From Alphaproteobacteria bacterium (GTDB lineage Bacteria > Pseudomonadota > Alphaproteobacteria > UBA828), in the NCBI GenBank assembly GCA_029937205.1, contig JAPYQV010000173.1, forward strand, positions 1 through 6,290: 6,290 nt of DNA. The letters run 5' to 3'. Shown piece by piece: positions 854-6,290 of this stretch (its first letter is position 1; each line of letters begins with the position of its first letter). Position numbers and translations under genes: made by a program. The notes below the pieces were generated by a model that saw only the letters and a program-made list of their open reading frames with translations, made no database searches and was not told the DNA's origin.

Positions 854-2055
854 ACCTTCGCCACCCCGATACGGAAGCAATCTACCTCGATTACAACGCC
901 ACCGCGCCAGTCAAACCACAAGTCACGGAGGCCATCGCCGGCGCATTGGCGATGACCGGCAATCCATCTTCCGTGCATCAGTTTGGCCGTGCGGCGCGGG
1001 ACGCCGTTGAGGAAGCGCGCGAGCGGGTTGCGGCGATGATCGGTGCCCAACCGGCGGAAATTGTTTTTACCGCGGGCGGCAGCGAAGCCAACAATACGGC
1101 GCTTTCCGGTGCTGGCCGGAAACGCCTGATCATTTCAAAAATCGAACACCCGTCGATACTCCGCGCCGCCGAAACGCTTGCCCAAGCGGGCAGTGGCGGG
1201 CGTGAGTTGCTTGTGCTGCCGGTTGATGGCGAGGGCGTCGTTTCACTCGACGCGCTCGACCGGGCGCTCGGCGCAAGCGCTGAGGATGCGTTGGTATCGA
1301 TCATGCTGGCCAACAATGAAACCGGCGTGATCCAGCCGCTCGCCGAAATCACCGCTCTGGCACACGGGCGCGGCGCGCTCGTCCATTGCGACGCGGTTCA
1401 GGCGCCAGGACGCATCGCCTTCGGCGTCGATAGCCTGGGCGTGGATATGCTTAGCCTGTCGGCGCATAAGTTCGGCGGCCCGAAGGGTGTCGGTGCACTG
1501 TTCCTACGCGCCGGCGCCGAACTTGATGCCCTCGTCGTCGGCGGCGGGCAGGAGCGGGGGCGCCGCGCCGGTACGGAGAACGTTGCCGGCATCGTCGGCT
1601 TCGGCGTTGCGGCCCAATTGGCGGCAGAGGATTTGCAAAATGCGCCGCATTTGGCGGCCTTGCGAGATGGCGTCGAACAGCGCCTGCGCGCCATCGACCC
1701 GGCGGTCAGAATATACAGCGCCGGTGCCGAGCGCCTGCCCAATACCACCTGTCTCACCATGCCGGGCGTGCAAAGCGAGACGCAGGTCATGGGTCTGGAT
1801 CTTTCGGGTGTTGCCGTTAGCGCCGGTTCCGCCTGTTCGTCGGGCAAGGTCGAGCCGTCCCATGTCCTGCGCGCTTTGGGCGCGCCCGACGCGGAGACCG
1901 GCTGCGCCATCCGAATCAGTCTTGGCTGGGCCAGCCGGGAAGCGGATGTGGATAAGCTGGTGAGCGTGTGGCGCGCTTTTTATGCCGGATTGACGGCGCG
2001 CTACACCGGCGGCATTTCGCAATCTTCGCAAAGCGCCAGTGCCATTGAGCGATGA
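850..2055 (+). CDS. iscS: Cysteine desulfurase (class V aminotransferase fold, IscS/NifS type)
   Basis: This is a PLP enzyme converting L-cysteine to L-alanine and an enzyme-bound persulfide, the sulfur donor for Fe-S clusters and thiolated tRNA. The 401 residues carry the family landmarks in order: YLDYNATAP (12-20), NPSSVHQFGR (38-47), FTAGGSEANN (73-82), the PLP-stacking His100 in EHPS, NNETG (155-159), HCDAVQ (179-184) and SAHKFGGPKG (204-213), in which Lys207 is the Schiff-base lysine. RRAGTEN (238-244) follows, then the catalytic loop SAGSACSSGK (324-333) with Cys329. These match E. coli IscS Lys206 and Cys328 almost position for position. The loop length and SSGK context place it in group I (IscS/NifS) rather than SufS. 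The start shares ATGA with the iscR stop, and no strong Shine-Dalgarno is evident, consistent with coupling. The short polar tail SQSSQSASAIER runs into a small repeat around the stop. The symbol iscS is by family; nifS-like is an equally fair label. Ferredoxin and mnmA downstream suggest roles in both cluster assembly and s2U formation. Confidence 0.92.
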   Translation: MNLRHPDTEAIYLDYNATAPVKPQVTEAIAGALAMTGNPSSVHQFGRAARDAVEEARERVAAMIGAQPAEIVFTAGGSEANNTALSGAGRKRLIISKIEHPSILRAAETLAQAGSGGRELLVLPVDGEGVVSLDALDRALGASAEDALVSIMLANNETGVIQPLAEITALAHGRGALVHCDAVQAPGRIAFGVDSLGVDMLSLSAHKFGGPKGVGALFLRAGAELDALVVGGGQERGRRAGTENVAGIVGFGVAAQLAAEDLQNAPHLAALRDGVEQRLRAIDPAVRIYSAGAERLPNTTCLTMPGVQSETQVMGLDLSGVAVSAGSACSSGKVEPSHVLRALGAPDAETGCAIRISLGWASREADVDKLVSVWRAFYAGLTARYTGGISQSSQSASAIER

Positions 2056-2462: not shown

Positions 2463-3164
2463 GTGGCCGGCGATACAGCCAAAGACGACACTGCGCCAGA
2501 CGGCCTGTTTGCCAGTCTGCGTGATGCTTGCGCCGAGGAGTGGCATGACTATACCCACCACCCCTTCCTCACGTCATTGGCCGCCGGCACACTGCCGAAG
2601 GCAGCGTTCCGCGCCTATTTGATACAGGATTATGTATTTCTCCGGCATTTTGCCCGCGCCTATGGCCTGGCCGCCTACAAGGCGGAGAGCCTGGCGGAAA
2701 TTCGCGCCGCGTTGAGCGGCCTCAGCGCCATTGTCGATGTCGAGATTGGACTGCATAAAAAATATTGCGCCGGCTGGGGCGTGGATTCCGCCACATTGGA
2801 AGCGGCGCCGGAAGACGATGCCACCCTGGCCTATACGCGCTATGTGTTGGAGCGCGGCATGGCCGGCGATCTGCTCGATCTTTATGTCGCTTTGGCGCCG
2901 TGCATTGTTGGTTACGGCGAAATCGGCGCGCGGCTGTTGGCCGATAAGGACATCCGTCTGGAAGGCAATCCCTACCGCGATTGGATTGAGATGTATGGCG
3001 GTGTGGAATATCAGGAGATTGCCGAACAGGCGGTTGGATACCTCGACAACATCGCCGAGACGCGCGGCGCACCGGCGCGCCGGGAAAGTTTGATCGCCAC
3101 CTTTCGCCAAGCCACTCGTTTGGAGACCGCGTTCTGGCAAATGGGTATGGCCGCGGCGGACTAA
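2463..3164 (+). CDS. tenA: TenA-family protein (aminopyrimidine aminohydrolase / thiaminase II)
   Basis: TenA enzymes hydrolyse degraded thiamin pyrimidines (amino-HMP) to HMP for thiamin salvage, and can also cleave thiamin. The 233 residues fit one TenA domain after a polar 14-residue leader. Landmarks are the helix EEWHDYTHHPFL (25-36), QDYVFLRHFARAYGLA (55-70) containing the pyrimidine-binding Asp56, LYVALAPCIVGYGEIG (140-155) containing Cys147 at the nucleophile position, NPYRDWIEMYGG (169-180), and LETAFWQMG (220-228) with Glu221 matching the catalytic glutamate. Cys, Asp and Glu are all present, so this is the Cys-containing TenA class. Phe59 occupies the place I align with B. subtilis Tyr47. 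The start is GTG, 2 bases after the ferredoxin stop; no other start occurs before residue 133, and the Shine-Dalgarno is weak, so translation is probably coupled. No thiamin riboswitch is visible. Its place in a sulfur operon may reflect the sulfur demand of thiamin synthesis, but that link is inference. Confidence 0.88.
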   Translation: MAGDTAKDDTAPDGLFASLRDACAEEWHDYTHHPFLTSLAAGTLPKAAFRAYLIQDYVFLRHFARAYGLAAYKAESLAEIRAALSGLSAIVDVEIGLHKKYCAGWGVDSATLEAAPEDDATLAYTRYVLERGMAGDLLDLYVALAPCIVGYGEIGARLLADKDIRLEGNPYRDWIEMYGGVEYQEIAEQAVGYLDNIAETRGAPARRESLIATFRQATRLETAFWQMGMAAAD

Positions 3165-3186
3165 CCGATAGAATCCATGCTTTCTC

Positions 3187-3214
3187 TTGTTCCACCGCAT
3201 TCACGCCCTATATT
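3187..3214 (+). promoter_or_regulatory. Possible sigma70-like promoter before mnmA
   Basis: TTGTTC (3187-3192) and TATATT (3209-3214) are separated by 16 bases in the 56-base gap between tenA and mnmA. Transcription would begin near 3221, on top of the first possible mnmA ATG. That would favour the second ATG (3251) or a leaderless message. The match is modest, so this is a suggestion only. Confidence 0.3.
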
Positions 3215-3217
3215 TCC

Positions 3218-3261
3218 GCCATGTCCCTATCACCTGCGACATCACCTGCCATGTCCCTATC
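3218..3261 (+). repeat. Direct repeat of 14 bases containing two alternative mnmA start codons
   Basis: GCCATGTCCCTATC occurs at 3218-3231 and again at 3248-3261, exactly 30 bases apart. Both copies carry an ATG in the mnmA frame, so the N-terminus reads MSLS twice (residues 1-4 and 11-14). ATCACCTGC is also repeated in between (3229-3237 and 3241-3249). A local duplication of the start region is the simplest explanation. Confidence 0.7.
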
Positions 3262-4414
3262 TTCGATCGAAGCCGGCATAGATAAGCCGCGCAGCAAGAC
3301 ACGCATTGTCGTGGCCATGTCGGGCGGGGTCGATTCCTCCGTCACGGCGGCGCTATATGCCGAGGCCGGATACGATGTGGTCGGTATCACGCTCCAACTT
3401 TATGACGATGGTGTGGAGCAAGGAAAGGTCGGCTCGTGTTGTGCCGGGCAGGATATTCACGACGCCCGGCGCGTCGCGGCGCATCTCGGCATTGCCCATT
3501 ATGTGCTCAATTACGAGAGCCGTTTCCGCAACGAGGTGATGGAAGATTTCGCTGATTCCTATTTGCGCGGCGAGACACCGATCCCGTGCATTACGTGCAA
3601 TCAGACGGTTAAATTCCGCGACCTTCTGGCCGCCGCCGGTGATCTTGGCGCCGATGCGCTTGCCACCGGACATTATGTCCGCCGCGTGATCGGCGAGAGC
3701 GGGCCGGAAATGCACCGCGCCCACGATCCGGTGCGCGACCAGAGCTATTTTCTATTCACCACCACGGCGGAGCAGCTTGCCTTCCTGCGCTTCCCGCTTG
3801 GCGATATCGCCAAGAGCGAGGTGCGTCGCCATGCCGAGCGCCTCGGCCTGGCGGTTGCGGAAAAACCCGATAGCCAGGATATCTGCTTTGTGCCGGGCGG
3901 CAATTACGCTGCCGTCATCGAACGGCTTCGGCCTGGCGCGGCGGAAGCCGGCGACATCGTCAATCACGCCGGCGAGGTTCTGGGGCAGCACGAGGGTATC
4001 ATTCACTATACCGTCGGCCAAAGGCGCGGGCTCGGCATCGCCGCGCCGGAGCCGCTCTATGTGGTCGCCGTCGATGCGGCGAAGCGGCTTGTCACCGTCG
4101 GGCCAAAGTCGGCGTTGCTATGTGACCGTATCACCCTCGACAGGACGCTATTTCTCGATACCGGCTTGGTGTGCGGCAGCGCGCACGACATTACCGTTCG
4201 CCTGCGTTCCACCCATCCCGGCGCGCCGGCGCGTCTGATCGTTAACTCCGATGGCACGGCGGAAATTCATCTTACGCAGCCCGAGGCCGCGACCGCGCGC
4301 GGGCAGGCGGCGGTCTGTTATCGCGGGGATCGTCTTCTCGGCGGGGGCTGGATCACCGGCACCGGGCGTAGCGCCGCCCTCGAGGCCGCTGCCGCGCAGA
4401 CGTTTTGTGATTAG
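3221..4414 (+). CDS. mnmA: tRNA-specific 2-thiouridylase MnmA
   Basis: MnmA uses ATP to adenylate U34 of tRNA(Lys, Glu, Gln) and inserts sulfur passed on as a persulfide, giving s2U34 in the cytoplasm. From the first ATG it has 397 residues. The PP-loop VVAMSGGVDSSV is at 30-41, SCCAGQDIHDARRVA at 72-86, and the first catalytic cysteine is Cys126 in PIPCITCNQTVKF. TGHYVR (149-154) and the tRNA-recognition stretch RDQSYFLF (172-179) follow, then the second catalytic cysteine Cys222 in DSQDICFVPGG. These two cysteines correspond to E. coli Cys102 and Cys199. The C-terminal part has the usual beta-barrel motif HYTVGQRRGLGIA. The second in-frame ATG at 3251 gives 387 residues and an N-terminus closer to the family's usual length before the PP-loop. 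Neither ATG has a Shine-Dalgarno, so the start is uncertain and the outer bound is given. The likely sulfur donor is the desulfurase upstream. The stop lies inside a CRP-like palindrome. Confidence 0.95.
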   Translation: MSLSPATSPAMSLSSIEAGIDKPRSKTRIVVAMSGGVDSSVTAALYAEAGYDVVGITLQLYDDGVEQGKVGSCCAGQDIHDARRVAAHLGIAHYVLNYESRFRNEVMEDFADSYLRGETPIPCITCNQTVKFRDLLAAAGDLGADALATGHYVRRVIGESGPEMHRAHDPVRDQSYFLFTTTAEQLAFLRFPLGDIAKSEVRRHAERLGLAVAEKPDSQDICFVPGGNYAAVIERLRPGAAEAGDIVNHAGEVLGQHEGIIHYTVGQRRGLGIAAPEPLYVVAVDAAKRLVTVGPKSALLCDRITLDRTLFLDTGLVCGSAHDITVRLRSTHPGAPARLIVNSDGTAEIHLTQPEAATARGQAAVCYRGDRLLGGGWITGTGRSAALEAAAAQTFCD

Positions 4415-4421
4415 CATCACA
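4406..4421. promoter_or_regulatory. CRP/FNR-family operator-like palindrome 1
   Basis: TGTGATTAGCATCACA is a perfect 6-base inverted repeat around TAGC and matches the E. coli CRP half-sites TGTGA-N6-TCACA at all ten positions. It covers the mnmA stop codon (TAG 4412-4414). Its centre (4413.5) is 31 bases before the middle of TAATAT (4442-4447), close to the 32 expected for a class II activator site at -41.5. No U-run follows, so it is not a terminator. Which regulator binds is unknown; alphaproteobacterial CRP/FNR proteins have diverse specificities. Confidence 0.55.
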
Positions 4422-4441
4422 GCGCGGATTACCAAATTCTT

Positions 4442-4447
4442 TAATAT
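4442..4447 (+). promoter_or_regulatory. Candidate -10 box for the first PilZ unit
   Basis: TAATAT matches four of six consensus positions and is placed where an activator bound at the palindrome centred on 4413.5 would need it. Transcription would then start near 4455, just before the riboswitch closing helix (4459). No good -35 is present, as expected for an activator-dependent promoter. Confidence 0.35.
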
Positions 4448-4458
4448 TCAGGGTCTAA

Positions 4459-4547
4459 GTTTCACGAAATGGCAAACCGCCGGTAACGGCGAGACGCAAA
4501 GCCTCCGGCCCAATCGATAGCGGGTAGCGGGGCCACCGAAAGGAAAC
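4459..4547 (+). promoter_or_regulatory. Cyclic-di-GMP-I (GEMM-I) riboswitch 1
   Basis: The aptamer core is read directly: GGCAAACC (4471-4478), a hairpin CGCCG-GUAA-CGGCG (4478-4491) with a GNRA loop, GACGCAAAGCC (4493-4503), then a second arm with CC 4505-4506 paired to GG 4529-4530 and CCC 4509-4511 paired to GGG 4522-4524, and finally ACCGAAAGG. This is the GEMM-I consensus. The ligand-contacting bases of the V. cholerae Vc2 aptamer are all present: G20 (4471), A47 (4498) and C92 (4536). G20 argues for c-di-GMP rather than the cGAMP-type variants. A closing helix GUUUC (4459-4463) with GAAAC (4543-4547) includes the GA of the Shine-Dalgarno AAAGGA (4539-4544). Stabilising this helix should hide the ribosome site, so I predict translation is off at high c-di-GMP; the direction is inference. 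The second arm is shorter than in Vc2. Confidence 0.93.
4539..4544 (+). promoter_or_regulatory. Shine-Dalgarno AAAGGA embedded in riboswitch 1
   Basis: AAAGGA ends 6 bases before the GTG at 4551 and identifies that GTG as the start of the first PilZ gene. It overlaps the conserved 3' end of the aptamer and the closing helix, so ribosome access and ligand binding should be linked. Confidence 0.75.
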
Positions 4548-4550
4548 GCC

Positions 4551-4880
4551 GTGCCGGCCCACGCGAACGATAAATCTTCCCCACAAAATGTAGACGAATC
4601 CTCGCCTCGCCATGATGATCGGCGCAGGTTCAGGCGCGAATTTGACGCAAATCAACAACTTCATCTCGTTGTTAACCACCGGCAATTGGTGACGATTGAT
4701 TGGTCTGCCGGCGGCTGTTTGGTCGAAGCCCTGGAAAATTGGCGTGTTGGCGATACGGTCGCCGGAACGTTGGAATCCCAAGATGGCGTGCCCATGGGCG
4801 CCGTTATCTCGAAAATCGTCAGAATAGACGATCAGAGTCGTGCCGCTCTGTGTTTCACAACGGTCGCAACGCTCTTTTGA
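4551..4880 (+). CDS. Single-domain PilZ protein 1 (predicted c-di-GMP receptor)
   Basis: This is a 109-residue cytoplasmic protein with no signal peptide or membrane segment. After a polar leader of about 22 residues comes the arginine motif DRRRFRRE (RxxxR, residues 24-28 or 25-29), then DWSAGG (50-55), an exact DxSxxG motif 25 residues later. These are the two c-di-GMP-binding signatures of PilZ domains, at normal spacing. Strands continue through VGDTVAGTLES and GAVISKIVRID to AALCF, completing a small PilZ barrel. There is no enzymatic or output domain, so it probably works by binding a partner protein, which is unknown. The start is GTG, fixed by AAAGGA 6 bases upstream; there is no in-frame ATG near it. 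Its leader is a c-di-GMP-I riboswitch, which strongly supports the assignment. A second, divergent copy with the same leader follows at 5080-5406. Confidence 0.85.
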   Translation: MPAHANDKSSPQNVDESSPRHDDRRRFRREFDANQQLHLVVNHRQLVTIDWSAGGCLVEALENWRVGDTVAGTLESQDGVPMGAVISKIVRIDDQSRAALCFTTVATLF

Positions 4881-4935
4881 GGAATTTCCATTATTCAATG
4901 TGAAACAGGGGTTTAGGCGCCTTATTTTGCCACTT
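4881..4935. other. Short intergenic stretch after PilZ gene 1, no gene seen
   Basis: This A/T-leaning 55-base spacer separates the first PilZ gene from the second CRP-like palindrome. It contains the self-complementary AGGCGCCT followed by TATTTTG, but no stem with a proper loop, so no convincing terminator. I see no coding sequence here. Confidence 0.5.
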
Positions 4936-4951
4936 TGTGACGAATGTCACT
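4936..4951. promoter_or_regulatory. CRP/FNR-family operator-like palindrome 2 (possible dual-use terminator)
   Basis: TGTGACGAATGTCACT matches nine of ten positions of the CRP half-sites TGTGA-N6-TCACA. Its centre (4943.5) lies 57.5 bases before the aptamer core GGCAAACC at 5001, exactly the distance in the first unit. In RNA the stem GUGAC-GAAU-GUCAC (4937-4950) is followed by UUUU (4951-4954), so it might also act as a weak terminator for the first PilZ gene. The regulator is unknown. Confidence 0.5.
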
Positions 4952-4973
4952 TTTCACGGGCATAAAATCTTGC

Positions 4974-4979
4974 AATAAT
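4974..4979 (+). promoter_or_regulatory. Candidate -10 box for the second PilZ unit
   Basis: AATAAT matches five of six consensus positions and is centred 33 bases after the centre of the CRP-like palindrome at 4943.5, near class II spacing. Transcription would start near 4985, just before the second riboswitch. There is no clear -35. Confidence 0.38.
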
Positions 4980-4988
4980 GTAAACAGT

Positions 4989-5073
4989 GTTCATCGAAAC
5001 GGCAAACCGCTGGTAACAGCGGGGCGCAAAGCCACCGGCCCAGGCATCGGGTAGCGGAGCTGCCGAAAGGAAC
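4989..5073 (+). promoter_or_regulatory. Cyclic-di-GMP-I (GEMM-I) riboswitch 2
   Basis: It has the same architecture as the copy at 4459-4547: GGCAAACC (5001-5008), hairpin CGCUG-GUAA-CAGCG (5008-5021), GGCGCAAAGCC (5023-5033), and a second arm with CC 5035-5036 paired to GG 5056-5057 and CCC 5039-5041 paired to GGG 5049-5051, closing with GCCGAAAGG. The contact bases equivalent to Vc2 G20, A47 and C92 are 5001, 5028 and 5063. The hairpin differs from copy 1 by a C-G to U-A exchange that keeps pairing, and the closing helix is GUUC (4989-4992) with GAAC (5070-5073) instead of GUUUC/GAAAC. Such compensatory changes show that structure is under selection. The closing helix again takes in the GA of the Shine-Dalgarno AAAGGA (5066-5071), predicting the same translational off-switch. 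Confidence 0.93.
5066..5071 (+). promoter_or_regulatory. Shine-Dalgarno AAAGGA embedded in riboswitch 2
   Basis: AAAGGA ends 8 bases before the TTG at 5080 and supports that rare start codon; no in-frame ATG occurs until codon 30. It overlaps the aptamer's conserved 3' end in the same way as at 4539-4544. Confidence 0.7.
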
Positions 5074-5079
5074 TGGAAA

Positions 5080-5406
5080 TTGAGAATTTTTGGATATTTA
5101 AGACGCCATTGGCGCTGGTGCAACCGGCGAGACGGCGCCCGGCTGGAGGATTTTCCATTGAAGTTGATGGTTGGCGAGCGTGAACTTGAAACGCTGAATT
5201 GGACGGTGGGCGGTTTTATGGCCCACGGACTTGAAGGCCTTGAGCCGAGAGACCGCTTCACGGGTCAATTGGAGCCGCCGGGCGGTCCATCATGCAAATT
5301 TACCGGCCAGGTCACGCGTGTGGACACCAATGGTGCCAGGGCCGTGCGCTTCGTCGAGGTCGATTTGTCCACGCTTTTGGCGATGCAGGATAGCCCCAGC
5401 GCCTGA
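5080..5406 (+). CDS. Single-domain PilZ-like protein 2 (divergent paralogue, TTG start)
   Basis: This is a 108-residue soluble protein. A basic, aromatic N-terminus (MRIFGYLRRHWRWCNRRDGAR) leads into RxxxR (Arg17-Arg21) and, 23 residues later, NWTVGG (40-45), an N/DxSxxG motif in which Ser is replaced by Thr. Later segments LEPRDRFTGQLEPPGG, CKFTGQVTRVDTNGARAVRFVEVD and LSTLLAMQ look like the remaining PilZ strands and end helix. Compared with the first PilZ protein, both have Trp after the D/N, GG at the motif end and a matching strand order, so they are probably paralogues. Signature changes make c-di-GMP binding likely but less certain than for copy 1. The start is TTG after AAAGGA (8-base gap) in the riboswitch leader. 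The partner and phenotype are unknown; motility, polysaccharide or pilus control would be typical of PilZ proteins. Confidence 0.75.
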   Translation: MRIFGYLRRHWRWCNRRDGARLEDFPLKLMVGERELETLNWTVGGFMAHGLEGLEPRDRFTGQLEPPGGPSCKFTGQVTRVDTNGARAVRFVEVDLSTLLAMQDSPSA

Positions 5407-5444
5407 GTAACGCACTGCGTTCATCCGGTGGCGCTCTGCTATGC

Positions 5445-5474
5445 TTGACTCCCAACACCACCCGGACGTATAGC
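5445..5474 (+). promoter_or_regulatory. Sigma70-like promoter for tRNA-Met
   Basis: TTGACT (5445-5450, five of six to consensus) and TATAGC (5469-5474) are 18 bases apart. The predicted start is near 5481, about 24 bases before the mature tRNA 5' end, a normal leader length. Confidence 0.6.
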
Positions 5475-5484
5475 CAACGCCGCG

Positions 5485-5498
5485 ATGGCTTCGGCCAT
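5485..5498 (+). other. UUCG-capped hairpin in the tRNA-Met leader
   Basis: ATGGC (5485-5489), TTCG, GCCAT (5494-5498) form a 5-bp stem with a C(UUCG)G loop, an exceptionally stable tetraloop, ending 6 bases before the mature tRNA. It may help precursor folding or RNase P access. No U-run follows, so it is not a terminator. Confidence 0.45.
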
Positions 5499-5504
5499 GG
5501 CTAT

Positions 5505-5580
5505 GGCGGGGTAGCTCAGTTGGTAGAGCAGTGGAATCATAATCCATGGGTCGGGGGTTCAAATCCCTCCCCCGCTACCA
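5505..5580 (+). tRNA. tRNA-Met (anticodon CAT, elongator type)
   Basis: This is a 76-base tRNA including an encoded CCA (5578-5580). The acceptor stem GGCGGGG (5505-5511) pairs with CCCCGCT (5570-5576), with a G-U at position 1-72. The D stem is GCTC/GAGC, and the anticodon stem GTGGA/TCCAT encloses loop ATCATAA with anticodon CAT. The variable loop is GGGTC, and the T arm is GGGGG-TTCAAAT-CCCTC. It lacks the C1:A72 mismatch and three G-C anticodon pairs of initiator tRNA. The sequence resembles alphaproteobacterial elongator tRNA-Met; tRNA-Ile2(CAT, lysidine-modified) is less likely. Its 3' half is overlapped on the opposite strand by the recombinase frame and is the probable integration site. 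No terminator is visible right after it. Confidence 0.95.
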
Positions 5581-6290
5581 GCGGTATTTGCACCCCAGTA
5601 TCCATTGATCCGGAGTGTTCGTCTTCCAGGGAAAAATCCAGCATTTCCGCCAGACTACCCCTCAAATGGATACGTAATTCGCCGTCGACGGGAACCAGCA
5701 GAATTTCTTCGATCAGATCCTGCAAGATGGCCGATGCCTCTGCCCGGGCACTTTCTTCATTTAGAGCTGTGCGCAGGTTGGCCACCTTCTTTCGATAAAT
5801 TTCACCGAGGTTCGGGTGAATTCGGACCGGCGTGGCGGGAGTCCCATCAATTTTCCTGCGCAAATTCTTTTTTTGATTCTCCAGCGCCATGAGTTCATCG
5901 GTCATGCTATCCGTTCGCATGCCGTCCTTGACGGCGTCGATGATGTGGCGAATGTCCATTTCCGTGCGGCTCAGTTCCGCCACGAGGCGATTGTGGGTCG
6001 TATTGTCGAGGGCCGCTTGCCGATTGAGTTCACGGTGATATTCCTTGGCAAACTCAGTCACGAGGTCAGGATGCATGAGCTTGTCGCGCAGCCCTTCGAG
6101 AACGCGAACCTCAAGATCGTCACGCCGAATTTTCAGGCGATTATCGCAGGTCCCCCTGTTCCGGGCCGTTGAGCAGCTATAGTGATGTCGGTGGTTCTTG
6201 GAATAGCCGCCACCACAAACACCGCAGCGAAGAAGCCCTGACAAGAGGTATCGCGGTCGCCGAGCACGCTCAGAGCGCACGCCATTGCTG
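5537..6290 (-). CDS. Large serine recombinase, C-terminal part (5' end outside window)
   Basis: The frame stays open to the right edge; the GTG at 6278-6280 is just an internal valine, so the N-terminal resolvase and recombinase domains lie outside. What is visible (residues numbered from that GTG) starts with RPRYLLSGLLRCGVCGGGYS, followed by YSCSTARNRGTC: Cys19, Cys22, Cys36 and Cys45 form the Cys4 zinc ribbon of serine site-specific recombinases. Next is a long charged helical region (about 55-140, LNRQAALDNTTHNRLVAELSR onward) matching the coiled coil, then a terminal region ending LRIHLRGSLAEMLDF. These enzymes integrate or excise DNA through a serine-linked break; the catalytic serine is not in view. 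The final residues LVAGEGFEPPTHGL are translated from the complement of the tRNA-Met 3' half, and the TGA stop (5539-5537) lies within the tRNA. This tail type is well known for integrases abutting tRNA genes. Sampled GC is lower here than in the sulfur genes, fitting acquired DNA. Confidence 0.88.
   Translation of the reverse strand, partial: SNGVRSERARRPRYLLSGLLRCGVCGGGYSKNHRHHYSCSTARNRGTCDNRLKIRRDDLEVRVLEGLRDKLMHPDLVTEFAKEYHRELNRQAALDNTTHNRLVAELSRTEMDIRHIIDAVKDGMRTDSMTDELMALENQKKNLRRKIDGTPATPVRIHPNLGEIYRKKVANLRTALNEESARAEASAILQDLIEEILLVPVDGELRIHLRGSLAEMLDFSLEDEHSGSMDTGVQIPLVAGEGFEPPTHGL
5545..5580. other. Probable integration (att) site in the 3' half of tRNA-Met
   Basis: The recombinase frame crosses this segment without a break and the tRNA remains intact through CCA, as expected if the incoming element carried an identical 3' tRNA segment. 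The exact core and the partner copy at the far end are outside the window, so the limits given are approximate. Confidence 0.4.
5581..6290. mobile_element. Left end of a putative integrated element next to tRNA-Met
   Basis: Everything from the tRNA CCA to the right edge is occupied by the serine recombinase gene, which is transcribed toward the tRNA. Sampled 60-base lines starting at 5821 and 6001 are about 48-50% GC, against about 68-75% for lines starting at 1381 and 4021. The cargo is not visible, so whether this is an island, a prophage or a recombinase remnant cannot be decided. Confidence 0.5.

What the first reader, a model, noticed from the sequence alone, without database searches (positions are those of the whole stretch)
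4406..5406. Duplicated cassette: CRP-like operator, c-di-GMP-I riboswitch, non-ATG PilZ gene, twice in a row
Two adjacent units have the same four parts in the same order. The distance from palindrome centre to aptamer core GGCAAACC is 57.5 bases in both (4413.5 to 4471; 4943.5 to 5001), while the sequence between them has mostly diverged. Each leader is a GEMM-I aptamer and each product is a lone PilZ-type domain. So one messenger appears to be read first by RNA, controlling synthesis, and then by the encoded protein. A probable CRP/FNR input adds a second signal. I am not aware of this exact tandem arrangement having been described, but cannot check.
Basis: partly seen in the sequence, partly recalled or inferred. 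Interest (0 to 1): 0.85.

Follow-up and report, generated by a model that had tools for sequence, protein, structure and literature searches.

The report
Two PilZ genes behind c-di-GMP riboswitches
In an uncultured alphaproteobacterium, two neighbouring genes for small PilZ-type proteins each sit behind a DNA site of CRP-consensus sequence and an RNA leader predicted to sense the messenger c-di-GMP, so the cell likely uses c-di-GMP to set how much it makes of what is predicted to be its own c-di-GMP receptor; the parts are all known, their combination is unusual.

Summary
The parts are real. Both leaders hit RF01051 above its cut-off (61.5 and 64.3 bits against 35) with contacts G20, A47, C92 intact. 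Both palindromes lie 57.5 bases before GGCAAACC. Both products are PilZ-type, unit 2 only through orthologues and fold.

Three parts of the reading change. (1) Not a duplicated cassette: the PilZ genes belong to different subfamilies (AU p=1e-5) and the paired aptamers are not each other's nearest. (2) Unit 2 most likely starts at TTG 5158, behind an SD seen in 5 of 5 orthologues, not at 5080; its 82-aa product then lacks RxxxR, so "read twice" is credible only for unit 1. (3) In unit 2 the palindrome is constant (5 of 5); the aptamer is intact in 2, vestigial in 1, absent in 2. Unit 1 has all parts in 3 of 3.

Likely mechanism: CRP-type activation, then c-di-GMP control of unit-1 translation (probably OFF), because the start codon lies 9 nt after the aptamer. 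SD occlusion got no covariation support. CRP plus GEMM-I has a precedent (Vibrio gbpA). Searches showed me no c-di-GMP riboswitch on a PilZ gene.

The parts
4406..4421 (+). CRP-type operator 1, TGTGATTAGCATCACA (overlaps the mnmA stop codon)
   Evidence: Read directly; TGTGA-N6-TCAC 0.01 expected in the window. Same place in G008 and G010; orphan copy TGTGATCCTAATCACA in G007.
4442..4447 (+). predicted -10 element of promoter 1 (TAATAT); start of transcription predicted near 4455, operator centre near -41.5
   Evidence: Inferred from spacing; the sigma-70 consensus scan reported no promoter here.
4461..4541 (+). c-di-GMP-I (GEMM-I) aptamer 1; ligand contacts G20=4471, A47=4498, C92=4536
   Evidence: RF01051 61.5 bits, RF03167 53.9 bits; contacts by PMC4744006 and PMC3764141 numbering, letters checked.
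4542..4545 (+). ribosome-binding site GGAA directly after the aptamer's P1 strand
   Evidence: Read directly; an SD-like triplet lies within 8 nt after the aptamer in 53 of 59 class-set and 29 of 63 phylum-set elements.
4551..4880 (+). unit-1 gene, 109-aa PilZ protein with RxxxR and DWSAGG (start GTG; ATG in G008 and G010)
   Evidence: Pfam PilZ 27.7 bits; dN 0.16, dS 1.11 against G008; AlphaFold model whose ten best Foldseek matches are PilZ-domain entries, best E 2.0e-3.
4936..4951 (+). CRP-type operator 2, TGTGACGAATGTCACT
   Evidence: TGTGA-N6-TCAC present in 5 of 5 unit-2 orthologues (G000, G007, G008, G009, G010).
4974..4979 (+). predicted -10 element of promoter 2 (AATAAT); transcription start predicted near 4985
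   Evidence: Promoter scan TTTTCA-17-AATAAT (0.7 expected by chance, so no proof); similar sequence up to TGTTCATC in 5 orthologues.
4991..5068 (+). c-di-GMP-I (GEMM-I) aptamer 2; ligand contacts G20=5001, A47=5028, C92=5063
   Evidence: RF01051 64.3 bits, RF03167 62.8 bits; letters checked.
5069..5157 (+). unit-2 leader after the aptamer, with hairpin CGCTGGT-GCA-ACCGGCG at 5113-5129 and ribosome-binding site GGAGGA at 5145-5150
   Evidence: dN/dS 0.21/0.35 for 5080-5157 against 0.107/1.25 in the rest of the frame, one genome pair, 26 codons; hairpin formed in 3 of 4 folds of G000 and G008; GGAGGA in 4 and GGAGAA in 1 of 5 orthologues.
5158..5406 (+). unit-2 gene, likely 82-aa PilZ-core protein (NWTVGG, no RxxxR); alternative start TTG 5080 (108 aa)
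   Evidence: Database protein P0001, 82 aa, longest contig 6290 nt like the window; fold.
3221..4414 (+). mnmA, conserved upstream neighbour
   Evidence: NCBIfam MnmA 409.5 bits; same order in 5 genomes, by reading of translations.
5505..5577 (+). tRNA gene (anticodon CAT read from the alignment), conserved downstream neighbour
   Evidence: RF00005 69.7 bits; same place in G007, G008, G009, G010.

Best explanation
Two PilZ-type genes of different subfamilies stand side by side, each with a CRP-consensus operator at a distance that predicts a class II CRP-type promoter and each with a c-di-GMP-I aptamer predicted to sense c-di-GMP, so that likely both a CRP-like activator and c-di-GMP set their expression. 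Inferred steps: (1) a CRP-like protein of this genome, whose recognition helix reads SRETVAR, binds at about -41.5 and switches transcription on. (2) The nascent leader folds as a GEMM-I aptamer and binds c-di-GMP. (3) In unit 1 there is no room for a terminator between aptamer and gene, so control most likely acts on translation or RNA stability. The ribosome-binding site directly follows the P1 strand that the ligand locks, so I predict that c-di-GMP turns synthesis OFF. (4) The 109-aa product has both c-di-GMP-binding motifs of PilZ, so the RNA would limit synthesis of a receptor for the same ligand. (5) In unit 2 the gene most likely begins 89 nt after the aptamer behind its own GGAGGA; its leader hairpin is the probable expression platform, and its 82-aa product, lacking RxxxR, is probably a partner or output protein rather than a canonical c-di-GMP receptor.
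For: Aptamers. Intact ligand contacts: letters, numbering from passages of PMC4744006 and PMC3764141. G rather than A at position 20 argues for c-di-GMP over c-AMP-GMP (passage of PMC9481103). Fixed operator-aptamer spacing: 5 of 5 PilZ-linked aptamers of the genus against 0 of 2, 0 of 50 and 3 of 55 controls. CRP-like regulator in G000, G007, G008 and G009, a sequence relative of CAP/CRP structures. GGDEF matches in 5 of 5 genus genomes searched, G006 not searched. Start codon 5-15 nt after the aptamer in 46 of 59 class-set elements (two of these are unit 2 of G000 and G008 counted by the upstream TTG, so 44 of 57 without them) but 9 of 63 phylum-set elements. No plus-strand terminator reported in 4380-5520. 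PilZ. RxxxR in 7 of 7 unit-1 rows. Unit-2 start. Synteny mnmA-[u1]-u2-tRNA.
Against: Pairing of the 5' flank with the ribosome-binding site is not better within leaders than between them: 742 of 2000 permutations as good for 56 of 59 class elements and 495 of 2000 for 8 of 63 phylum elements; 35 of 120 for the five genus PilZ leaders. Predicted SD pairing differs between leaders (paired in unit 1 of G000 and G008, largely open in unit 2 of G000). The OFF direction is therefore an argument from layout only; Vc2 is described as an ON switch (review passage, PMC12564702) and Vc1-dependent expression falls when c-di-GMP falls (PMC4744006 passages). G010 has both palindromes but no match to the CRP-like regulator at E<=1e-20. 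The unit-2 aptamer is dispensable in evolution (intact in 2 of 5). Two of three unit-1 homologues scanned fall just under the Pfam cut-off (22.1, 21.1, 34.0 bits against 22.5). G006, same genus, 86% complete, has neither genes nor aptamer. I have no expression or binding data.
Confidence: 0.55

Rival explanations
1. Same parts, opposite sign: c-di-GMP binding turns the PilZ genes ON (positive feed-forward), as described for Vc1 and Vc2 of Vibrio cholerae.
For: Lowering c-di-GMP reduces Vc1-dependent expression (passages of PMC4744006); Vc2 is called a gene-on switch (passage of PMC12564702). No covariation supports occlusion of the ribosome-binding site.
Against: Layout of unit 1: GGAA follows the P1 strand at once and the start codon is 9 nt on, so ligand-locked P1 should hinder ribosomes; the Vc1 aptamer lies in the first 111 nt of a leader of about 225-244 nt, a different layout.
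Confidence: 0.3
2. Relic reading: the lineage is losing these leaders. The CRP-type promoter is the working control of the PilZ genes and the aptamers are inherited remnants.
For: Unit 2 keeps the palindrome in 5 of 5 genomes but an intact aptamer in only 2 of 5; G010 keeps 17 nt of it, now part of a hairpin that runs into a T-stretch; a degenerate GEMM-like leader (18.6 bits, E=0.0037) precedes a PilZ gene in G008:C226.
Against: In G000 and G008 the ligand contacts are intact and the aptamers score far over cut-off; unit 1 keeps its aptamer in 3 of 3.
Confidence: 0.12
3. True tandem duplication of one CRP-aptamer-PilZ cassette, blurred by fast divergence.
For: Same order of parts and identical operator-aptamer distance; the second-nearest aptamer of unit 1 is unit 2 of G008 (84%).
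Against: Holding unit-1 and unit-2 PilZ proteins together as one clade is rejected, p=1.0e-5 (116 columns, long branches). Within a genome the two aptamers are 79-80% identical and rank 7th to 30th for each other among 58 others.
Confidence: 0.08

Closest known systems
Vibrio cholerae gbpA: cAMP-CRP promoter plus Vc1 GEMM-I leader (PMC4545359 abstract and section list; PMC4744006 passages)
   Same: One gene under both CRP and a c-di-GMP-I aptamer in its leader.
   Different: gbpA codes for a GlcNAc-binding colonization factor, not a c-di-GMP receptor; single unit; leader of about 225-244 nt. There Vc1 raises expression with c-di-GMP, while c-di-GMP inhibits transcription independently of Vc1.
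c-di-GMP-I riboswitch, RF01051, and its variant model RF03167 (c-di-GMP-I-GGC)
   Same: Sequence, secondary structure and contact nucleotides.
   Different: The gene class controlled: PilZ. In 59 class-set elements only 5, all of this genus, precede PilZ genes; in 63 phylum-set elements none was found.
Tandem c-di-GMP-I riboswitches (347 doublets and 12 triplets, PMC9481103 passage)
   Same: Several c-di-GMP-I aptamers close together.
   Different: There the aptamers stand in tandem as one system; here each aptamer has its own predicted promoter and gene.
Single-domain PilZ proteins (Foldseek best hits: Alg44 PilZ 4rt0/4xrn, PA4608 1ywu)
   Same: Fold; unit 1 also has both binding motifs.
   Different: Unit 2 most likely lacks the RxxxR segment.
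L166, JANQKO010000459.1, Alphaproteobacteria MAG PL25a_bin.159
   Same: GTGA-N6-TCAC 47 nt before a GEMM-I aptamer before a PilZ-type gene.
   Different: Single unit seen; half-sites GGTGA/TCACT; Pfam PilZ 18.3 bits, below the 22.5 cut-off.

Membership tests
c-di-GMP-I riboswitch (RF01051) | Covariance-model score over the curated cut-off | tested here: met
   61.5 and 64.3 bits, cut-off 35
c-di-GMP-I riboswitch (RF01051) | Ligand-contact nucleotides G20, A47, C92 | tested here: met
   4471/4498/4536 and 5001/5028/5063 (contact list; placing the numbers on the sequence, C92 above all, rests on a Vc2 sequence that I recalled)
c-di-GMP-I riboswitch (RF01051) | Binds c-di-GMP and changes expression | not testable with these tools
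   needs in-line probing and reporter fusions
c-AMP-GMP (GEMM-Ib) riboswitch | A instead of G at position 20 | tested here: not met
   G in both units; criterion from a PMC9481103 passage
c-di-GMP-I-GGC (RF03167) | Score over cut-off of 59 bits | tested here: inconclusive
   unit 2 62.8 (over), unit 1 53.9 (under)
PilZ domain (PF07238), unit 1 | Pfam cut-off 22.5 bits; RxxxR; (D/N)xSxxG | tested here: met
   27.7 bits; RxxxR and DWSAGG read in the sequence; RxxxR in 7 of 7 unit-1 rows; motif definitions recalled. Homologues P0024 and P0027 score 22.1 and 21.1, just under cut-off
PilZ domain (PF07238), unit 2 | Pfam cut-off 22.5 bits | tested here: inconclusive
   16.1-16.7 bits itself; P0002, P0008, P0010 pass at 22.7, 25.4, 23.4 bits; precomputed Pfam names PilZ in 2 of 21 relatives; Foldseek best hits PilZ, TM to query about 0.7, best E 2.4e-3
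c-di-GMP-binding PilZ, unit 2 | RxxxR motif before the barrel | tested here: not met
   absent from the likely 82-aa product; RDGAR exists only if translation starts at 5080, a stretch with weak coding constraint
Class II CRP-dependent promoter | TGTGA-N6-TCACA site | tested here: met
   operator 1 perfect, operator 2 one letter off at the last base; consensus recalled
Class II CRP-dependent promoter | Site centred at -41.5 from the transcription start | not testable with these tools
   inferred from AT-rich -10-like hexamers about 28-36 nt from the centre; start not mapped
Tandem gene duplication | The two copies are each other's closest paralogues | tested here: not met
   AU p=1.0e-5; aptamer ranks

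The most novel reading that the evidence does not exclude
A messenger that doses its own receptor, gated by a second signal: c-di-GMP, through RNA, sets the synthesis of a c-di-GMP-binding PilZ protein, and in parallel of a neighbouring RxxxR-less PilZ partner from another subfamily, while a CRP-type signal decides whether either is transcribed. The pair would form a two-input, same-ligand RNA-then-protein circuit that was assembled by convergence of two unrelated PilZ genes onto one leader design rather than by duplication.
Probability: 0.35. Interest if true: 0.7.

Novelty: new variant of a known kind. Interest (0 to 1): 0.5.

Why it matters
If true, the amount of a second-messenger receptor protein is set by an RNA receptor for the same messenger, which would give the cell built-in desensitisation (OFF) or amplification (ON) of c-di-GMP signalling. 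It makes a testable case of layered sensing: RNA and protein receptors of one ligand in one gene, with a CRP-type gate. It also gives a small natural series (intact, vestigial, absent aptamer behind one conserved promoter) in which the contribution of a riboswitch can be separated from that of the promoter. [quoted passage not shown]

Tried and rejected
Position 43 (A in unit 1, G in unit 2, same in G008) first looked like a changed ligand contact; checking the numbering in PMC3764141 showed that A47 is the first A of GCAAAGC and is intact in both, so I dropped a 'different ligand' claim.

Sequestering of the ribosome-binding site by the 5' flank: complementarity seen by eye (GUUUC/GAAAC, GUUC/GAAC) did not survive permutation (742 of 2000; 35 of 120).

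Tandem duplication: rejected. c-AMP-GMP specificity: not favoured, because position 20 is G. That the units are part of a mobile element: not supported; the order mnmA-(u1)-u2-tRNA is shared by five genomes.

PilZ downstream of other GEMM-I aptamers was sought with a profile built from six PilZ proteins of this genus and a motif expression, on ORFs of 50 aa or more starting within 700 nt; a distant PilZ could have been missed. The class and phylum searches used stricter filters that lose weak aptamers. The wide genome scan listed 80 of 92 stretches, so 12 were not seen; 2 of the 80 have PilZ by that profile (one is the same genus).

Literature: searched a library of open-licence PMC papers only; I saw listings, one abstract with its section list (PMC4545359) and found passages of the others, no paper in full. 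The 2017 variant-riboswitch paper that I believe defined the GGC type (recalled) was not held, and the original GEMM gene lists of 2007-2008 were not seen.

Full report
Setting. The window is the whole of contig C120 in a metagenome-assembled genome of 3.38 Mb, 630 contigs, 87% complete, 6% contaminated. Its genes run: end of a frame at 3-284, an Rrf2/IscR-type regulator, a NifS/IscS-type desulfurase, a 2Fe-2S ferredoxin, TenA, MnmA, then the two units, a tRNA and a recombinase fragment on the other strand. A same-genus genome, G010, holds a contig of the same length and match position as CAJXFT010000028.1, 'uncultured Alphaproteobacteria bacterium isolate ERR599062_bin.171', so I take the window to be alphaproteobacterial.

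Aptamers. RF01051 scores 61.5 bits (4461-4540) and 64.3 bits (4991-5067) against a cut-off of 35. RF03167 scores 53.9 and 62.8 against 59. A model built from 22 alphaproteobacterial aptamers, the window's own two among them, gives 92.9 and 90.4 bits. Published contact nucleotides of Vc2 (passages) map to G 4471, A 4498, C 4536 in unit 1 and G 5001, A 5028, C 5063 in unit 2 (letters; the mapping uses a Vc2 sequence that I recalled). G, not A, at position 20 argues for c-di-GMP rather than c-AMP-GMP (passage of PMC9481103). Binding itself is untested.

Operators. TGTGA-N6-TCAC occurs at 4406 and 4936, 0.01 expected in the window. It lies 50 nt (four cases) or 51 nt (one) before the core in the five PilZ-linked aptamers of the genus. 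It is absent from the 2 other aptamers of the genus and from 50 of 50 other class-set aptamers tested, and present in 3 of 55 phylum-set aptamers, all of one genus at 56 nt (genus label). A regulator is plausible: G000, G007, G008 and G009 encode a CRP/FNR-family protein with recognition helix SRETVAR or TRETVSR, a sequence relative of CAP/CRP structures; that this is the CRP-type helix is from memory. G010 has the palindromes but gave no match to that regulator. AT-rich -10-like hexamers at 4442-4447 and 4974-4979 put the operator near -41.5 (inference; the promoter scan gives one hit against 0.7 expected).

Proteins. Unit 1 is a 109-aa protein over the Pfam cut-off, with RxxxR and DWSAGG; dN 0.16 and dS 1.11 against G008. 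Its AlphaFold model (mean pLDDT 78) finds PilZ domains first, at weak E-values (best 2.0e-3). Unit 2 has a more confident model (87.4) that also finds PilZ domains first, TM about 0.7, E 2.4e-3, but its own Pfam score is under the cut-off. Where unit 2 starts matters. The 108-aa frame begins at TTG 5080. Against that: the database protein P0001, 99% identical and with a longest contig of 6290 nt, is 82 aa and starts at TTG 5158, and 8 of 21 relatives have exactly 82 aa (range 62-104); a GGAGGA site (GGAGAA in G009) precedes that start in 5 of 5 orthologues; and codons 5080-5157 show dN/dS 0.21/0.35 with little third-position excess (6, 3, 7 differences) while the rest shows 0.107/1.25 (12, 6, 37) (one pair of genomes, 26 codons). 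I therefore take 5158 as the likely start. The product then has no RxxxR, and 5069-5157 is a conserved leader; a hairpin at 5113-5129, same in G008, forms in 3 of 4 folds.

Relatives. In the order, 22 genomes were searched. G008 has the full tandem. G010 has unit 1 complete, and unit 2 with its palindrome, GTTCATCGAAACGGCAA of the aptamer region and then an 8-bp hairpin (-9.5 kcal/mol, loop of 10) whose 3' arm runs into a stretch of eight T; the terminator scan, limited to loops of 3-8, did not report it. G009 and G007 have unit 2 with its palindrome and no aptamer; unit 1 is missing, but G007 keeps a perfect orphan palindrome between mnmA and unit 2. G006 gave no match to either gene or to the aptamer models. 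MnmA plus TenA place G000 with G008 and G010 with G009 and G007 (unrooted), so the unit-2 aptamer was probably present in the common ancestor and lost, if the root lies between these groups. In short, in unit 2 the CRP-type operator is the constant element and the riboswitch the variable one.

Not a duplication. In a tree of 19 lone PilZ proteins of the genus, unit 1 groups with three PilZ genes of G008:C226 and unit 2 with two other groups; one clade of both units is rejected (AU p=1.0e-5; 116 columns and some long branches, so a caution stands). In this genome the two aptamers are 80% identical and rank 8th for each other among 58 others; against this, the second-nearest aptamer of unit 1 is unit 2 of G008 at 84%.

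How common. RF03167 occurs in 33 of 385 class genomes at E<=1e-5, RF01051 in 34 of 398 phylum genomes at E<=1e-6. PilZ genes follow 5 of 59 class-set elements (56 rows and 3 more), all five of this genus, and 0 of 63 phylum-set elements, G000 left out. A scan of one genome per species for the operator-aptamer geometry gave 92 stretches, 80 listed: 2 have PilZ, one being G010 and one (L166) from another alphaproteobacterial MAG. So an operator-like palindrome before GEMM-I is a recurrent design and PilZ as its cargo looks rare.

Mechanism. In unit 1 the start codon lies 9 nt after the aptamer, so control most likely acts on translation or RNA stability. In the class set 46 of 59 elements have a start 5-15 nt after the aptamer (44 of 57 without unit 2 of G000 and G008), in the phylum set 9 of 63. 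The layout suggests that ligand-stabilised P1 hinders the ribosome (OFF). Permutation tests found no covariation for direct pairing of the ribosome-binding site with the 5' flank (742 of 2000 and 495 of 2000; 35 of 120), so the sign remains a prediction, with ON as the main rival.

Known or new. cAMP-CRP on a gene with a GEMM-I leader is known for Vibrio cholerae gbpA (abstract of PMC4545359). Tandem c-di-GMP-I aptamers are known (passages of PMC9481103). I did not find a c-di-GMP riboswitch on a PilZ gene in searches of an open-licence library, which misses most subscription papers; a passage of PMC7266159 says that many GEMM-associated genes relate to c-di-GMP production, degradation or signalling, so earlier gene lists may hold such cases. 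I rate it a new variant of a known kind.

Noticed in passing
class-set loci, e.g. L011, L012, L016, L021, L023, L025, L026: In this class c-di-GMP-I aptamers recur in front of genes for a ParA-like ATPase (SQKGGSGKTT...): at least 14 of 59 elements by my count, in several families.
   Followed up: no
L215 (G008:C226) 1381-1472, minus strand: A degenerate GEMM-like leader (18.6 bits, E=0.0037 with model R1; the next background match has 14.1 bits, E=0.05) directly before a lone PilZ gene, in a cluster of three lone PilZ genes related to unit 1; the core GGCAAACC is lost and Rfam gave no match.
   Followed up: partly
L214 (G010:C28) 3160-3193: The unit-2 leader of G010 keeps the first part of the aptamer, now one arm of an 8-bp hairpin whose other arm runs into a stretch of eight T (-9.5 kcal/mol): an aptamer relic that looks like a terminator, though the scan with its loop limit did not list it.
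   Followed up: partly
L038 (G183:C3), places 63022-63109 and 63558-63646: Another pair of aptamer-gene units in a row in a different family: a 114-aa protein not identified here and then a ParA-like ATPase.
   Followed up: no
L254 (G422:C36) 975-1057 and 1197-1279: Two c-di-GMP-I aptamers whose starts are 222 nt apart on the same strand, in a 1.5-Mb genome.
   Followed up: no
loci, e.g. L121, L124, L144, L149 (Woeseiaceae or Gammaproteobacteria), L120, L126, L147, L184 (Vibrio, Photobacterium): GTGA-N6-TCAC at a near-fixed distance before GEMM-I aptamers recurs in Woeseiaceae (61-62 nt, before one family that begins MNVVIFGKG) and in Vibrionaceae (63-65 nt, in three of the four loci before a TfoX-like gene, name recalled); CRP-type input to GEMM-I leaders may be widespread.
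   Followed up: no
5505-5577 and 5537-6289: The tRNA gene overlaps the 3' end of a recombinase frame (zinc-ribbon domain) on the other strand, as at an integration site; the contig ends inside that frame.
   Followed up: no
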